Source: a virus. Taken from it: a stretch of DNA of 21,539 nucleotides. The stretch is from the IMG/VR virus record IMGVR_UViG_3300045999_003547, positions 1-21,539 of that record. One strand, given 5' to 3'. A model generated the notes under the pieces. The model did not search any database and was not told the DNA's origin. It worked only from the letters and a program-made list of their open reading frames with translations. Position numbers and translations under genes: made by a program. Positions 1 through 3,973 of the stretch are shown here, one piece after another; position 1 is the first letter of the stretch, and each line of letters starts with the position of its first letter.

Positions 1-61
1 AATGGTAATACCTTAGCCTTCCAAGCTAAAGCGAGGAGTTCGATTCTCCTCACCCGCTCCA
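1..61 (+). tRNA. tRNA-Gly(UCC), 5' end outside window
   Basis: The anticodon stem TTAGC/GCTAA encloses the loop CTTCCAA, giving anticodon TCC at 20-22. The T arm has a 5-bp stem and the canonical loop TTCGATT. The 3' acceptor strand CACCCGC is followed by discriminator T58 and an encoded CCA at 59-61. The 5' acceptor strand and part of the D arm lie before the window. It is probably the last member of an upstream tRNA block. Confidence 0.93.
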
Positions 62-83: not shown

Positions 84-578
84 GTGTATACCAGAATGAA
101 TGTTGACGCAGTGAAAGACTTCATCATGAATCAGTCTCCAGAGACAAAAGTCTACATTGGTGGAGACTCTGAGCGCATTATGATCAATGACGTTTGGTAT
201 GCCGATTATACTCTTGCTGTTGTTGTTCATATTGACGGAAAGCATGGCTGTAAAATCTTTGGTGATGTGCAGCGTGAAAAAGACTATGAGAAGAACAAGA
301 ACAGACCTCGAATGAGGCTCATGACGGAAGTCTACAAGATTTCCGAATTGTATCTCCAGCTTGCTGATGTCTTAGAAGACAGAGAAGTTGAAATTCACCT
401 GGACATCAACCCAGATGAAAGATACGGAAGTTCTTGTGTAGTGCAAGAAGCAATCGGATACATTCGCGGTATGTGTAATGTGGTGCCTATGGTAAAGCCA
501 AGAGCATTCGCAGCATCTTACTGCGCAGACAGACTAAAAGAGATCATAAACATGCAGCAAAACAAACTTGCAGCATGA
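84..578 (+). CDS. YkuK/DUF458-family RNase H-like protein
   Basis: This 164-residue protein resembles the YkuK (PF04308, 'RNase_H-like') family, predicted to adopt an RNase H fold; no reaction is established for the family. The first strand carries YIGGDSE (residues 24-30) with candidate metal ligand D28. An acidic helix follows (TEVYKISELY, E82), then HLDINPDE (about 105-112, D107/D111) and a C-terminal KPRAFAAS stretch, the usual order of acidic residues. Length fits the family. The GTG start is chosen because AGGAG lies 6 nt upstream; an in-frame ATG at 96 is the alternative. It sits 22 nt after a tRNA and just before a structured RNA and a Ro-like protein, which suggests an RNA substrate (inference). 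Confidence 0.75.
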   Translation: MYTRMNVDAVKDFIMNQSPETKVYIGGDSERIMINDVWYADYTLAVVVHIDGKHGCKIFGDVQREKDYEKNKNRPRMRLMTEVYKISELYLQLADVLEDREVEIHLDINPDERYGSSCVVQEAIGYIRGMCNVVPMVKPRAFAASYCADRLKEIINMQQNKLAA

Positions 579-579
579 C

Positions 580-608
580 TTGACAGGAAGACAATTTCCT
601 GTTACACT
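580..608 (+). promoter_or_regulatory. sigma70-like promoter of the ncRNA/TROVE operon
   Basis: TTGACA at 580-585, a 17-nt spacer and TACACT at 603-608 make a near-consensus promoter. Transcription should begin near 615. The sequence just after the -10, ATAGTCTGTTGATTGA, is shared with the cassette promoters at 6201, 6961, 8387, 12336 and 15580, so this unit belongs to the same regulatory class. The first start codon with a ribosome-binding site is at 1005, leaving an unusually long untranslated transcript. Confidence 0.8.
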
Positions 609-614
609 ATAGTC

Positions 615-963
615 TGTTGATTGAAAACTTAGGGTGATTACAGCAAACAAATTCTAACGCTAAGGAGAGTCTTTAATCGGAGGACCCGCGTAAGCGGTTA
701 CAAAGTAGACTAGGATGCACAATTGCCGAATCTTGTGCTAGTGCCTACGACATAGGATGACGCAGATAATTCTGATAGTTTGGGTGGGGAGAAGCACCTT
801 AGTTAGAACAACTGATCAAACACGAACCGAACACCCTGCTATATTTACGAGAATAGGTTCAGCAAATCAAATGACTTAGCGTGTAACGCGCTTCCGGTAT
901 GTTGGGGAGAACCCCGGCAAGGTGAGTTTCGAGTTCTCTCCTTCGGTTCAATTCCGAAAGACT
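615..963 (+). ncRNA. Candidate structured RNA with tRNA T-arm mimic (possible Y-like RNA)
   Basis: The 426 nt between the nuclease and TROVE genes have a strong promoter but no credible reading frame. A perfect T-arm mimic lies at 942-958: 5-bp stem TTCGG/CCGAA with loop TTCAATT, matching the tRNA T-loop consensus. Directly 3', AGACT (959-963) can pair with AGTCT (668-672), the position an acceptor-type stem would take. Other hairpins are 901-918 (7 bp, loop AGAA), 717-738 (GCACAA/TTGTGC), 744-756 (CCTA/TAGG) and 801-813 (AGTT/AACT). Long-range alternatives exist (657-664 with 875-882; 662-669 with 936-943), so the fold is not unique. Bacterial Y RNAs mimic tRNAs and lie beside Ro genes, hence the proposal. 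I cannot place a Ro-binding stem with confidence. A long structured leader or another phage RNA class are alternatives. Confidence 0.5.
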
Positions 964-1004
964 AAAAAGAAGAAAACTATTCTGTTGCATTGAAAGGAAA
1001 TATC

Positions 1005-2432
1005 ATGAACACTTTTGTTGACGCTGTTATGAATCAAGAAGCCCGCACTGAGAATGGAATGAAGGCGCGTAAGTCTACTTCCAATGCATGTGTGGATCTG
1101 TTTTTCAAGATCGGCGCATCTCGCGGCAAGAACATCCTGAAGGAGTTCATTGCTGCATACGTTGAGAACAAGGACCTTGCACTGCGCATTGCACAGTGGG
1201 CGCGTGATGCGCGTGGTGGTTCTGGTGAGCGCCAGGTGTTTCGCGACATCTTGGCATATCTGGAAAAGAATGATCCAGAATCCGCAAAGGCTCTTTTGCC
1301 TAAGGTGCCTACTCTTGGGCGTTGGGATGACATCTTTGTCTTCCAAACTTCCGAGTTGAAGTCTGCTGCATACAGTATGCTTGGTGATGCACTGCGCGAG
1401 AAGAATGGTTTGGCTGCTAAGTGGACTCCTCGCCAAGGTCCAATCGCAGTTGAGATCCGCAAGTTCTTCGGCATGTCTCCGAAGTTCTATCGGAAGTCTC
1501 TTGTTGAGATGACTAAGGTCGTTGAGCAACAAATGTGTGCTAAGGAATGGGATGAGATCAACTTCTCTCATGTTCCTTCTGTTGCACATGCGCGATACAA
1601 GAAGGCTTTTGGGCGTAACACTCCTAAGTACGCTGAGTACGTGACTTCCCTTGTTAAGGGTGACAACCCCGAAGTCAAGGTGAATGCAGGTGCAGTGTAT
1701 CCTTACGATGTGTTGAAGGGTGCGATCTCTCCTTACAATAGAGTTCAGTTTGACAAGACTGGGCTTGATCTGATGACTAAGCAGTGGGAAGCACTGGAGA
1801 ACTTCATCGGTGATGCAAGCGTGTTGCCTCTGGTTGACGTTAGCGGATCTATGACTATCCCTGTGGGTGGTCATGGTTCTAAGACTCAGTTGAATTGTCT
1901 GGAAGTTGCAGTCTCTTTGGGATTGTACTGTGCAGACAAGAACAAGGGTAAGTTCAAGGACACGTTCTTGACTTTCTCTGGTAAGCCAGAACTGTTGCAT
2001 CTTAAGGGTAACATCGTTCAGAAGATTGAGCAGATGACTTCCTCAGATTGGGGAATGAATACTGATCTGGTTTCAGCAATGAACCTGATCCTGATGACTG
2101 CTGTGAAGGGCAATGTTCCTCAAGAGGAAATGCCTGGAATGCTTCTGATCATGTCCGATATGCAGTTTGATCGATGCGCAAGTTTTGATGACTCCGCTAT
2201 GGAGACAATCAAGCGCAAGTTCACTCAGAACGGATATGAAGTGCCTGCGATTGTGTTCTGGAATATCAACTCAAAGGACAATGTTCCTGCGAAGTCTAAT
2301 CAGAGCAAGGTTGCGATGGTATCTGGTTTCAGCCCAGCTATCATGAAGTCTGTTCTGAGTGCTGACACTGAAAAGTTCACACCAGAAGGCATCATGTTGA
2401 ACACTGTGATGGTACCAAGGTACGATCTGTAA
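1005..2432 (+). CDS. TROVE/Ro60-like (DUF2828-type) protein with vWA domain
   Basis: This 475-residue protein has the two-part architecture of Ro60/Rsr relatives. The N-terminal helical-repeat part carries the family block ARDARGGSGERQVFRD (residues 66-81). A C-terminal vWA domain has a complete metal-ion-dependent adhesion site: DVSGS (278-282), the threonine of NTDL (T353) and the aspartate of MSDMQ (D385). Ro proteins bind misfolded RNAs in the ring cavity and Y RNAs on its outer surface, and the bacterial homologue tethers to exonucleases. The ATG at 1005 is preceded by AAAGGAAA; an in-frame TTG at 990 has no better site. The stop overlaps the next start (TAATG). DUF2828 and TROVE are related, and I cannot decide between them by eye. 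Confidence 0.85.
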   Translation: MNTFVDAVMNQEARTENGMKARKSTSNACVDLFFKIGASRGKNILKEFIAAYVENKDLALRIAQWARDARGGSGERQVFRDILAYLEKNDPESAKALLPKVPTLGRWDDIFVFQTSELKSAAYSMLGDALREKNGLAAKWTPRQGPIAVEIRKFFGMSPKFYRKSLVEMTKVVEQQMCAKEWDEINFSHVPSVAHARYKKAFGRNTPKYAEYVTSLVKGDNPEVKVNAGAVYPYDVLKGAISPYNRVQFDKTGLDLMTKQWEALENFIGDASVLPLVDVSGSMTIPVGGHGSKTQLNCLEVAVSLGLYCADKNKGKFKDTFLTFSGKPELLHLKGNIVQKIEQMTSSDWGMNTDLVSAMNLILMTAVKGNVPQEEMPGMLLIMSDMQFDRCASFDDSAMETIKRKFTQNGYEVPAIVFWNINSKDNVPAKSNQSKVAMVSGFSPAIMKSVLSADTEKFTPEGIMLNTVMVPRYDL

Positions 2433-3064: not shown

Positions 3065-3138
3065 GCGGGATTAGTTTATTGGTAAAACGAAACCTTGCCA
3101 AGGTTTAGTGACCAGTTCGATTCTGGTATTCCGCTCCA
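3065..3138 (+). tRNA. tRNA-Gly(GCC)
   Basis: Acceptor GCGGGAT pairs with ATTCCGC, discriminator T, CCA encoded at 3136-3138. The anticodon arm is AAACC, loop TTGCCAA, GGTTT, giving anticodon GCC. The T loop is canonical. It starts directly after the stop codon of the ATP-grasp-like gene, so it is probably cut from the same transcript. Confidence 0.93.
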
Positions 3139-3146
3139 GTAACAAT

Positions 3147-3221
3147 GGTGGCTATGGTGTAATGGAAGCACTCGACTCTGTGAAAGTCGTAGCCTGAGGT
3201 CGGTACTCAGTAGTCACCCCA
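3147..3221 (+). tRNA. tRNA-His(GUG) with encoded G-1
   Basis: Acceptor GTGGCTA (3148-3154) pairs with TAGTCAC, the extra G-1 at 3147 faces C73, and CCA is encoded. The anticodon arm CGACT/AGTCG has loop CTGTGAA, giving GTG. The G-1:C73 pair is the histidine identity element. The T arm (CTGAG/CTCAG) is paired but its loop is GTCGGTA instead of TTCRANY, losing T54 and A58. Confidence 0.88.
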
Positions 3222-3228
3222 ATTTAAT

Positions 3229-3304
3229 GCTGCTTTAGCTGATGTGGTCATAGCGGAGGCCTGAAGAGCCTTGGAACGTGGTTCGATCCCACGAGGCAGC
3301 ACCA
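3229..3304 (+). tRNA. tRNA-Phe(GAA)
   Basis: Acceptor GCTGCTT pairs with AGGCAGC (one G-T), discriminator A, CCA encoded. Anticodon arm GAGGC, loop CTGAAGA, GCCTT gives GAA. The T arm is CGTGG/CCACG with loop TTCGATC. Confidence 0.93.
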
Positions 3305-3312
3305 GAACAAAC

Positions 3313-3388
3313 ACGCCCTTGGTGAAACTGGAGATCACATAAGTCTACGAAATTTAAGTTGGGGATTCGAATTCCTCAGGGCGTACCA
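3313..3388 (+). tRNA. tRNA-Arg(ACG)
   Basis: Acceptor ACGCCCT pairs perfectly with AGGGCGT, discriminator A, CCA encoded. The D arm is GTGA/TCAC. The anticodon arm TAAGT/ATTTA (one G-T) holds loop CTACGAA, giving ACG, normally read as inosine at position 34 after host TadA modification. T arm GGGGA/TCCTC has loop TTCGAAT. Confidence 0.85.
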
Positions 3389-3393
3389 TTATT

Positions 3394-3485
3394 GGCGCTG
3401 TGGCAGAGTCCGGTTTATTGCAGCAGTCTTGAAAACTGCCGATCCCGAAAGGGGTCCGTGAGTTCGAATCTCACCGGCGCCGCCA
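3394..3485 (+). tRNA. tRNA-Ser(UGA)
   Basis: Class II tRNA: acceptor GGCGCTG with CGGCGCC, discriminator G and encoded CCA. Anticodon arm GCAGT/ACTGC has loop CTTGAAA, giving TGA. The long variable arm (GATCCC GAAA GGGGTC) and G73 are serine identity features. Confidence 0.93.
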
Positions 3486-3493
3486 GTAAGTAT

Positions 3494-3582
3494 AGTGAGT
3501 TGGATGAGTGGCTTAAATCGGCACCCTGCTAAGGTGTTGTTCGTAGAAATACGGACCGTGGGTTCGAATCCCACACTCACTG
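3494..3582 (+). tRNA. tRNA-Ser(GCU), CCA not encoded
   Basis: Class II tRNA: acceptor AGTGAGT pairs with ACTCACT, discriminator G3582. Anticodon arm GCACC/GGTGT (one G-T at its outer end) has loop CTGCTAA, giving GCT. A long variable arm is present. The three bases after the discriminator are CCG, so the tail must be repaired by a nucleotidyltransferase. It is the only complete tRNA here without an encoded CCA. Confidence 0.9.
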
Positions 3583-3588
3583 CCGTCA

Positions 3589-3617
3589 TTGACAAAGAAA
3601 TGATCTTCTGATAAAAT
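3589..3617 (+). promoter_or_regulatory. Promoter inside the tRNA array
   Basis: TTGACA at 3589-3594, a 17-nt spacer and TAAAAT at 3612-3617 form a near-consensus promoter between tRNA-Ser(GCU) and tRNA-Leu. The predicted start near 3624 is only about 3 nt before mature tRNA-Leu, so this promoter gives the last four tRNAs, and possibly the following hydrolase gene, a second transcript. Confidence 0.8.
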
Positions 3618-3626
3618 GTTTATGTT

Positions 3627-3703
3627 GCCCCGGTGATGGAACCGGTATACGTGTCGGATTCAAAATCCGAATTTTGAGGGTTCGAATCCCTCCTGGGGCA
3701 CCA
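3627..3703 (+). tRNA. tRNA-Leu(CAA) with short variable loop
   Basis: Acceptor GCCCCGG pairs with CTGGGGC, discriminator A, CCA encoded. Anticodon arm TCGGA/TCCGA has loop TTCAAAA, giving CAA (UUG codon). Only 5 nt (3671-3675) separate the anticodon and T stems, so this is a class I shape, whereas bacterial tRNA-Leu normally has a long variable arm. The D stem is short (ATG/CGT). Confidence 0.8.
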
Positions 3704-3714
3704 GAAGAAATAAT

Positions 3715-3789
3715 GCGCCTCTAGCTCAATGGGAGAGCAGAGCCCTCATAAGACTTTGGTACTTGGATCGAAACCAAGGGGGCGCACCA
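3715..3789 (+). tRNA. tRNA-Met(CAU) or tRNA-Ile2
   Basis: Acceptor GCGCCTC pairs with GGGGCGC, discriminator A, CCA encoded. The anticodon loop CTCATAA gives CAT; its stem GAGCC/GACTT contains a C-A mismatch. The T loop is ATCGAAA (A54 instead of T54). CAT can mean elongator Met, or Ile2 if lysidine-modified, and I cannot tell which. It lacks the three G-C pairs of an initiator anticodon stem. Confidence 0.78.
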
Positions 3790-3796
3790 AGAATTT

Positions 3797-3893
3797 ACCT
3801 CTATAGTTTAATGGCAGAACACCCGGCTTATAATCGGTTAAATGGCTCCGCGACGGGGGCGTAGTGTAGGTTCGAATCCTACTAGAGGTACCA
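3797..3893 (+). tRNA. tRNA-Ile(UAU) with a 27-nt variable region
   Basis: Acceptor ACCTCTA pairs perfectly with TAGAGGT, discriminator A, CCA encoded. D stem GTTT/GAAC. The anticodon loop CTTATAA gives TAT (AUA codon). The T arm GTAGG/CCTAC with TTCGAAT is canonical. The variable region 3839-3865 is 27 nt and can form a hairpin (GCTCC with GGGGC), which is unexpected for Ile. Either a class II-like isoleucine tRNA or a small insertion. Confidence 0.75.
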
Positions 3894-3895
3894 AT

Positions 3896-3973
3896 GCACC
3901 GGTGGCAGAGTGGTCAAATGCAACGGATTGCAAATCCGTAAAGTCGTCAGTTCAAATCTGACCCGGTGCTCCA
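3896..3973 (+). tRNA. tRNA-Cys(GCA)
   Basis: Acceptor GCACCGG pairs with CCGGTGC, discriminator T, CCA encoded. The anticodon arm ACGGA/TCCGT with loop TTGCAAA gives GCA. T arm GTCAG/CTGAC, loop TTCAAAT. U73 is a cysteine identity base. It is the last tRNA before the hydrolase gene. Confidence 0.92.

What the first reader, a model, noticed from the sequence alone, without database searches (positions are those of the whole stretch)
942..963. Perfect tRNA T-arm mimic at the 3' end of the candidate RNA
TTCGG-TTCAATT-CCGAA is a canonical T arm (5-bp stem, consensus loop with the closing G-C), yet no tRNA can be completed around it. The next five bases (AGACT) can pair with AGTCT at 668-672, where an acceptor-like stem would close. 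Bacterial Y RNAs carry just such a tRNA-like module.
Basis: partly seen in the sequence, partly recalled or inferred. Interest (0 to 1): 0.72.

Follow-up and report, generated by a model that had tools for sequence, protein, structure and literature searches.

The report
Phage Y-RNA-like array with tRNA mimics
The T-arm look-alike is a real hairpin inside one of a series of small RNAs that phages and bacteria encode beside a Ro60-like RNA-binding ring protein; many of these RNAs imitate tRNAs or single tRNA arms, possibly to lure tRNA-handling or tRNA-cutting enzymes.

Summary
The T-arm hairpin at 942-958 is real, beyond chance, and conserved through compensating changes in three relatives. 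The proposed acceptor stem (668-672 with 959-963) is wrong: it joins two RNAs. The hairpin sits in its own module, 850-987, closed by GAATAG 851-856 / CTATTC 977-982. A second module, 630-838, precedes it. Both lie behind a sigma-70-like promoter and before a gene whose predicted structure is full-length Ro60.

Related loci show a large, apparently uncatalogued RNA family. Its modules have a 6-8 bp closing stem of almost free sequence, an unpaired CNGCAA on the 5' side and UG after the 3' strand. Unselected tests give perfect pairing in 29 of 29 modules, and a Ro60-like gene directly downstream in 39 of 39. The same modules precede bacterial homologues.

Module interiors are often tRNA mimics: T-arm-like hairpins, circularly permuted tRNAs, tRNA bodies lacking an acceptor stem, and 45-75 nt modules showing one anticodon arm. 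All 82 such arms carry A or U at position 36; 54 match the tRNAs cut by the PARIS nuclease AriB. They work like Y RNAs but lack YrlA's signature. The decoy role is a testable guess, not shown.

The parts
84..578 (+). upstream CDS, RNase H-like (PF04308, phrog_11311)
580..608 (+). sigma-70-like promoter TTGACA-17-TACACT, just upstream of module 1
   Evidence: 1 found, 0.7 expected; consensus only
630..838 (+). module 1 (type C): UAGGGUG 630-636 / CACCCUG 832-838 closing stem, CAGCAA at 641-646, conserved internal helix 668-672/707-711
668..711 (+). internal helix AGTCT 668-672 / AGACT 707-711 of module 1 (the homologous place of a helix that covaries in relatives)
   Evidence: in the window itself the script's best local helix is 674-679/695-700
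850..987 (+). module 2 (type B): closing stem GAATAG 851-856 / CTATTC 977-982 (A850-T983 adds a pair), TGTTG 983-987
860..865 (+). CAGCAA, conserved single-stranded element 3 nt inside the closing stem
921..941 (+). hallmark type-B hairpin GGTGAG-TTTCGAGTT-CTCTCC (one T-T mismatch in the window, paired in relatives)
942..958 (+). the reported T-arm-like hairpin TTCGG-TTCAATT-CCGAA, accessory second hairpin of module 2
964..976 (+). A-rich tag AAAAAGAAGAAAA before the 3' closing strand, typical of type-B modules
1005..2432 (+). Ro60-like ring protein, 475 aa: DUF2828 + DUF7788 (vWA), phrog_850
3065..3973 (+). array of ten tRNA genes downstream

Best explanation
The hairpin is part of a Y-RNA-like small RNA. 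A promoter at 580-608 probably makes one transcript with two RNA modules (630-838, 850-987) followed by the mRNA of a Ro60-like ring protein. Each module is closed by its own stem of near-free sequence; the constant parts (CNGCAA on the 5' side, UG after the 3' strand) would be what the ring protein grips, while the interior is the display part. In the window the display parts are a large structured RNA (module 1) and T-loop-type hairpins (module 2); in relatives they are permuted tRNAs, tRNA bodies without acceptor, or single anticodon arms. By analogy with bacterial Y RNAs, the ring protein would hold the RNAs and the displays would recruit or occupy enzymes that bind tRNA. Shown computationally: the modules, their covarying stems, the link to the gene, the Ro60 fold, the tRNA mimicry. 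Inferred: transcription, processing into units, binding by the protein, recruitment or lure.
For: Closing stem and motif: 131 hits in the window plus 80 loci, all 131 upstream of the gene, 2 on the other strand, 0-3 in each of 20 Markov shuffles. Unselected: 29 of 29 modules with all six pairs, re-dealt arms mean 7.2, max 14; 56 of 63 occurrences found by the 5' half alone have the complementary 3' strand, 6% with foreign 6-mers. Gene link: 39 of 39 loci found by RNA pattern alone have the gene start 35-365 nt downstream on the same strand. Same modules in 7 of 12 named phages and, by descriptor, in 57 of 80 bacterial homologue loci. Protein: Foldseek top nine are Ro60/TROVE/Rsr, E 7.5e-9 to 3e-7; VIA Z 19.1 over 406 residues. 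tRNA mimicry: 82 of 209 viral mini modules with anticodon-type arms; shuffle controls (38 of 104, mean 0.24; 18 of 35, mean 0.12); 32 modules with T-before-D order, 23 with a capped acceptor.
Against: No binding or expression data for the window. Window Rfam search empty, YrlA included. The motif differs from YrlA's Ro site. Five of 12 named phages with the protein show no clear module near it (L083, L084, L089, L092, L093), and 18 of 80 bacterial loci have no descriptor hit even with the relaxed core. Pfam assigns DUF2828/DUF7788, not TROVE, and the sequence-only PDB search is weak (best Ro/TROVE hit E 0.058). Folding of 600-975 as one piece is not more stable than shuffles (z -0.59). In CKA15 the most transcribed non-coding region (26,236-26,727) is not the array (25,216-25,589).
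Confidence: 0.82

Rival explanations
1. Anticodon-arm and tRNA-like modules are decoys that tie up host tRNA-targeting immune nucleases (AriB of PARIS, PrrC and others), held on the Ro60-like ring.
For: Anticodon set UUU/UGU/GUU makes up 54 of 82 arm-bearing viral mini modules (10 of 28 distinct arms against 85 of 680 distinct tRNA arms in the same loci, Fisher p 0.002) and all 54 have U39; [quoted passage not shown] PMC7790460 already proposes that YrlA may competitively inhibit an anticodon nuclease (passage).
Against: AriB also needs contacts outside the anticodon arm. 15 of 82 arms have A36 and so do not fit AriB; the W36-A37-A38 rule fits the substrates of the A37-modifying enzymes (t6A, i6A; recalled) as well. 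Related phages are not independent. Bacterial loci hold such modules too, and some of their arms have C36. The window's own modules carry no anticodon arm.
Confidence: 0.25
2. Cis-acting leader: the modules are operator structures by which the Ro60-like protein controls its own mRNA.
For: In the window the last module ends 18 nt before the start codon; the type-B tag lies 35-365 nt before the gene in 39 of 39 loci.
Against: Arrays of up to 5-7 modules, modules downstream of the gene among tRNA genes in the K-12 phage skuden, 27 of 65 occurrences without the gene in the stretch held, and elaborate tRNA mimicry that autoregulation does not need.
Confidence: 0.15
3. DNA element: inverted repeats of a mobile or recombining cassette rather than RNA.
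For: Short inverted repeats around variable cargo, in tandem, look cassette-like.
Against: Orientation fixed to the gene (131 of 131; 39 of 39 on the same strand), an asymmetric unpaired CNGCAA, and interior T-loops and anticodon loops readable on one strand only.
Confidence: 0.04
4. tRNA pseudogene, tmRNA or chance hairpin.
For: T-arm consensus; tRNA genes nearby.
Against: ARAGORN and Rfam negative; 0.03 expected by chance; homologous hairpins covary.
Confidence: 0.02

Closest known systems
Bacterial Y RNA YrlA (Rfam RF02553) with Rsr
   Same: RNA encoded beside a Ro60-fold protein, stem made from the two ends, tRNA-like interior; circularly permuted T arm - capped acceptor - D arm also occurs in relatives of the window. 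YrlA is known to mimic the D, T and acceptor arms and to tether Rsr to PNPase (PMC8394870, passage), and its tRNA match is a circular permutation (PMC11472068, passages).
   Different: YrlA's Ro site (GGCGA-AUGC / CUUG-UCGCC) is not the CNGCAA/UG motif; YrlA has no anticodon arm; here modules come in arrays, with anticodon arms, acceptor-less tRNA bodies, or non-tRNA RNAs.
Phage Y RNAs beside Ro-like proteins (Chen et al. 2014, recalled and seen only as cited by others; Listeria phage CKA15, PMC12282133)
   Same: Phage Ro-like gene with non-coding RNAs upstream; P100-like phages hold the modules found here.
   Different: Chen 2014 could not be read; the passage seen speaks of mycobacteriophages. 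PMC12282133 proposes Y RNAs from position and abundance and gives, in the passages read, no structure or motif.
Ro60 / TROVE proteins, including Thermus phage phiLo Ro60 (PDB 9l5y)
   Same: Same fold over nearly the whole chain and a vWA domain.
   Different: Different Pfam families (DUF2828, DUF7788), 12-18% identity in structural alignments.
Phage tRNAs that rescue or evade tRNA-cutting immunity
   Same: Anticodon sets overlap with targets of AriB and PrrC.
   Different: Those are whole, functional tRNAs; the modules here are arms or acceptor-less bodies that could not be charged (inference).

Membership tests
YrlA / bacterial Y RNA (RF02553) | covariance-model match over the curated threshold | tested here: not met
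   window 579-1004: nothing at E<=1. EFDG1 modules 43.2 and 34.2 bits against cut-off 69; weak matches that look like tandem tRNA genes also reach 30-42 bits with this model, so such scores are not specific
YrlA / bacterial Y RNA (RF02553) | encoded beside a Ro60-like gene | tested here: met
YrlA / bacterial Y RNA (RF02553) | stem formed by 5' and 3' ends | tested here: met
   29 of 29 and 56 of 63 unselected
YrlA / bacterial Y RNA (RF02553) | YrlA Ro-binding sequence at the base | tested here: not met
   true YrlA loci L183, L184 show GGCGAAUGC/CUUGUCGCC or close to it and no CNGCAA-UG stem
YrlA / bacterial Y RNA (RF02553) | tRNA-like T-acceptor-D domain | tested here: inconclusive
   absent in the window's modules; present in relatives (32 modules in T-before-D order)
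YrlA / bacterial Y RNA (RF02553) | binding to the Ro60-like protein and to an effector such as PNPase | not testable with these tools
   needs biochemistry
Ro60 / Rsr | full-length Ro60 fold (HEAT-type ring plus vWA) | tested here: met
   AF2 pLDDT 85; Foldseek and VIA
Ro60 / Rsr | Pfam TROVE (PF05731) match | tested here: not met
   DUF7788 and DUF2828 only
Ro60 / Rsr | vWA MIDAS DxSxS | tested here: met
   D278, S280, S282 invariant in 47 sequences
tRNA / tmRNA | cloverleaf or tmRNA found by ARAGORN or Rfam | tested here: not met

The most novel reading that the evidence does not exclude
Phages (and some bacteria) carry arrays of tRNA-part decoys: small RNAs, held by a Ro60-like ring through a shared CNGCAA stem motif, that display single anticodon arms and other tRNA pieces chosen to occupy host enzymes acting on the anticodon loop, above all tRNA-cutting immune nucleases whose target set (Lys UUU, Thr UGU, Asn GUU) matches the commonest displayed arms.
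Probability: 0.25. Interest if true: 0.93.

Novelty: new variant of a known kind. Interest (0 to 1): 0.76.

Why it matters
What Ro60-like proteins and Y RNAs do in phages is open. A shared, searchable stem motif makes the RNAs findable in phages already in culture, including coliphages of E. coli K-12 (skuden and related Felixounaviruses). The tRNA-piece displays give a concrete, testable idea: that phages keep decoys against enzymes that act on tRNA anticodon arms. It also links human Ro60 biology, bacterial Y RNAs and tRNA-based immunity.

Tried and rejected
One RNA spanning 600-975: the free fold is no better than shuffles and relatives show two modules. tmRNA, tRNA, Rfam families: none in the window's intergenic stretch. 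blastn of the intergenic region against named phages: no match. T-arm search upstream in relatives with a rigid 5+7 pattern mostly found what look like tRNA genes. A first module descriptor with free offsets gave chance hits inside genes and was replaced by the fixed register. Viral scan with the EFDG1 protein found no relative. TROVE search in five bacterial genomes was empty. Two proteins with internal stops (L105, L110) were left out of A2. L038 was dropped by eye from the helix set as a misfit, 9 of 44 tags had no CAGCAA within 260 nt and were not scored. L025, L027 and L029, without a strict hit, carry CNGCA variants by eye. In one search the script's best helix for the window and for L025 is not the homologous one. 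Mononucleotide shuffles were used, Markov-1. Paper searches for prior description; the key papers (Chen 2014, two Sim reviews) are not held, so earlier description of parts of this cannot be excluded.

Full report
Setting. The window is an IMG/VR virus record of 21,539 bases. The hairpin lies in the intergenic stretch 579-1004 between an RNase H-like gene and gene 1005-2432, upstream of ten tRNA genes.

The observation. TTCGG-TTCAATT-CCGAA is at 942-958. The T-arm pattern occurs eight times in the window, seven of them in tRNA genes or in the tRNA cut by the left edge, against 0.03 expected. No tRNA, tmRNA or Rfam family covers it. So it is real and not chance.

Relatives show what it belongs to. 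A protein search of viral contigs gave 122 relatives, 80 kept. Upstream of the gene these show repeated modules: a stem of almost free sequence, NNN, CAGCAA, a variable interior, the complementary strand, then UGUU. In the window plus 80 loci (528,529 bases) the fixed-register descriptor finds 131 hits, all upstream of the gene; 2 on the other strand, 0-3 in 20 Markov shuffles. Sliding the two strands out of register gives 0-5 hits, except when both slide together along the same helix: outward by 1 or 2 gives 133 and 153, so the helix extends to UAGG.../...CCUG; some other slides give 10-28. 67 of 70 sources with at least 300 nt upstream have a module; the other three carry CNGCA variants by eye.

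Because those hits were chosen for pairing, two unselected tests were made. With the type-B tag as the only anchor, 44 tags were found, 9 had no CAGCAA within 260 nt, and all 29 distinct modules among the rest have all six pairs (174 of 174 cells); re-dealt arms give 7.2 on average, 14 at most. With the 5' half as the only anchor in all viral contigs, 65 distinct occurrences were found; of 63 with room, 56 have the complementary strand followed by UG, against 6% for foreign 6-mers.

The link to the gene is tight. All 39 loci found by a type-B DNA pattern alone have the gene start 35-365 nt downstream on the same strand. For the 5'-half pattern, 37 of 65 have it downstream, 1 upstream, 27 have none in the stretch held. 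Seven of 12 named phages with the gene show clear modules: Synechococcus BUCT-ZZ01, Aeromonas LAh_9, Escherichia skuden, Campylobacter CP30A, Listeria P100, Enterococcus EFDG1, Bacillus FADO; five do not near the gene: Ci1, nt-1, Krypton555, DLP_6, OC. In skuden the modules lie downstream, among tRNA genes, and the stretch is found in 251 phage records.

The window's anatomy. Module 1 is 630-838, with stem UAGGGUG/CACCCUG and CAGCAA at 641-646. Module 2 is 850-987, with stem GAATAG 851-856 / CTATTC 977-982 and CAGCAA at 860-865. Inside module 2, with the closing stem set aside, folding gives four hairpins, among them 921-941 and the reported 942-958. The 921-941 hairpin (GAG-TTTCGANTT-CTC core) is the hallmark of type-B modules and its outer pairs covary; the window's copy has one T-T mismatch. 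The 942-958 hairpin has counterparts in 3 others of 60 distinct type-B modules, with compensating changes: CTGG/CCAG, CTAG/CTAG, TCCGG/CCGGA. The proposed long-range pair 668-672/959-963 is not supported: AGACT also occurs at 707-711, where the homologous strands of relatives pair with compensating changes. A promoter-like site lies at 580-608.

The protein. Pfam gives DUF7788 and DUF2828, PHROGs an RNA-binding family. A sequence profile finds Ro/TROVE entries only weakly. The predicted structure (pLDDT 85, pTM 0.85) matches Ro60: the first nine Foldseek hits are Ro60, TROVE or Rsr, VIA Z 19.1 over 406 residues to Ro60 (2i91), 15.1 to Ro60 of Thermus phage phiLo, 12.9 to Rsr of Deinococcus. 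The MIDAS residues are invariant. So it is a Ro60-fold protein outside the TROVE Pfam model.

The interiors mimic tRNA. Short modules often hold a single 5 bp/7 nt anticodon-type arm (loop YUNNNRA): 38 of 104 in one viral set (shuffle mean 0.24, max 2), 18 of 35 in a set found by the 5' pattern (mean 0.12, max 2; it shares some contigs with the first), 14 of 83 in bacterial loci. Pooled, 82 of 209 distinct viral mini modules have such an arm, 28 distinct arms. The stems change while loops such as CUUUUAA and CUUGUAA stay. Longer modules hold circularly permuted tRNAs (32 with T before D among 248 modules of 76 nt or more, 23 with a capped acceptor; T plus D arms in 1 of 4,960 shuffles), or D-anticodon-T bodies whose acceptor is replaced by the closing stem (L072, L069, L076; read by eye; the classifier counts 3 of order DAT). 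EFDG1 modules score 43.2 and 34.2 bits with the YrlA model, under its cut-off of 69; such scores are not specific, since weak matches that look like tandem tRNA genes reach 30-42 bits.

Which tRNAs are imitated. All 82 arms have A or U at position 36 (28 of 28 distinct arms; 442 of 680 distinct tRNA arms with the same loop type in these loci, p 8e-6), and 25 of 28 have A31-U39 (counted by eye from the list). Anticodons UUU, UGU and GUU make 54 of 82 modules (10 of 28 distinct arms, against 85 of 680, CGU counted too in both, p 0.002), all 54 with U39. The PARIS nuclease AriB cuts tRNA-Lys(UUU), Thr(UGU) and less Asn(GUU) and Thr(CGU), with U36AAU39 shared by them, but also needs contacts elsewhere in the tRNA (PMC12409363, passages). 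The arms with A36 do not fit AriB; the wider rule W36-A37-A38 also fits enzymes that modify A37 (recalled). Related phages are not independent samples, the short modules are AU-rich, and bacterial modules include C36 arms. So the decoy idea is a lead.

Known and new. True YrlA loci found here show a permuted T-acceptor-D domain and another Ro site. Papers read in passages say that YrlA mimics D, T and acceptor arms and tethers Rsr to PNPase (PMC8394870), that Y RNA superposes on tRNA by circular permutation (PMC11472068), that YrlA might inhibit an anticodon nuclease (PMC7790460), and that phage CKA15 has abundant non-coding RNAs upstream of an Rsr-like gene whose protein is found in virions (PMC12282133, passages and one section). 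In CKA15 the array found here is at 25,216-25,589 and unannotated; the one transcribed region with coordinates in the passages read, 26,236-26,727, is another one. I found no description of the CNGCAA motif, of arrays with anticodon arms or of acceptor-less bodies in the searches named under Tried and rejected, but the main 2014 paper could not be read. I therefore file this as a new variant of a known kind: it works like a Y RNA with a Ro60-fold partner, and is not a member of the YrlA family as defined by Rfam.

Noticed in passing
L090:65-415 (Enterococcus phage EFDG1): A tmRNA gene in a phage (Rfam RF00023, 140.6 bits), close to the Ro60-like locus.
   Followed up: no
L088:2372-3029 (Listeria phage P100): Non-coding stretch that, by distance, corresponds to the most transcribed non-coding region (26,236-26,727) of phage CKA15; no Rfam match at gathering score. 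A large abundant RNA of unknown kind.
   Followed up: no
window 630-838 and homologues (e.g. L004, L005, L007): Type C module: a long conserved structured RNA (GGAGG near its 5' side, a covarying helix) carried on the same closing stem; not tRNA-like, function unknown.
   Followed up: partly
window 3797-3893: tRNA-Ile(TAT) with an insertion of about 24 nt between anticodon arm and T arm relative to the Rfam model.
   Followed up: no
window 1-58: 3' part of a tRNA cut by the left edge of the record (Rfam tRNA 35.7 bits), so the tRNA set also extends upstream.
   Followed up: no
L103-L182: Relatives of the Ro60-like protein in bacterial (many Clostridia and Synergistaceae) and one Lokiarchaeota genome assembly, many with tandem modules, e.g. 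five in a row in L171:669-1063.
   Followed up: partly
L088:6738-8021 and L085:9100-9383: Phage RNA-repair genes (tRNA splicing ligase in P100, RNA ligase 2 in LAh_9) within a few kb of the Ro60-like gene, reminiscent of bacterial rsr-rtcBA operons.
   Followed up: no
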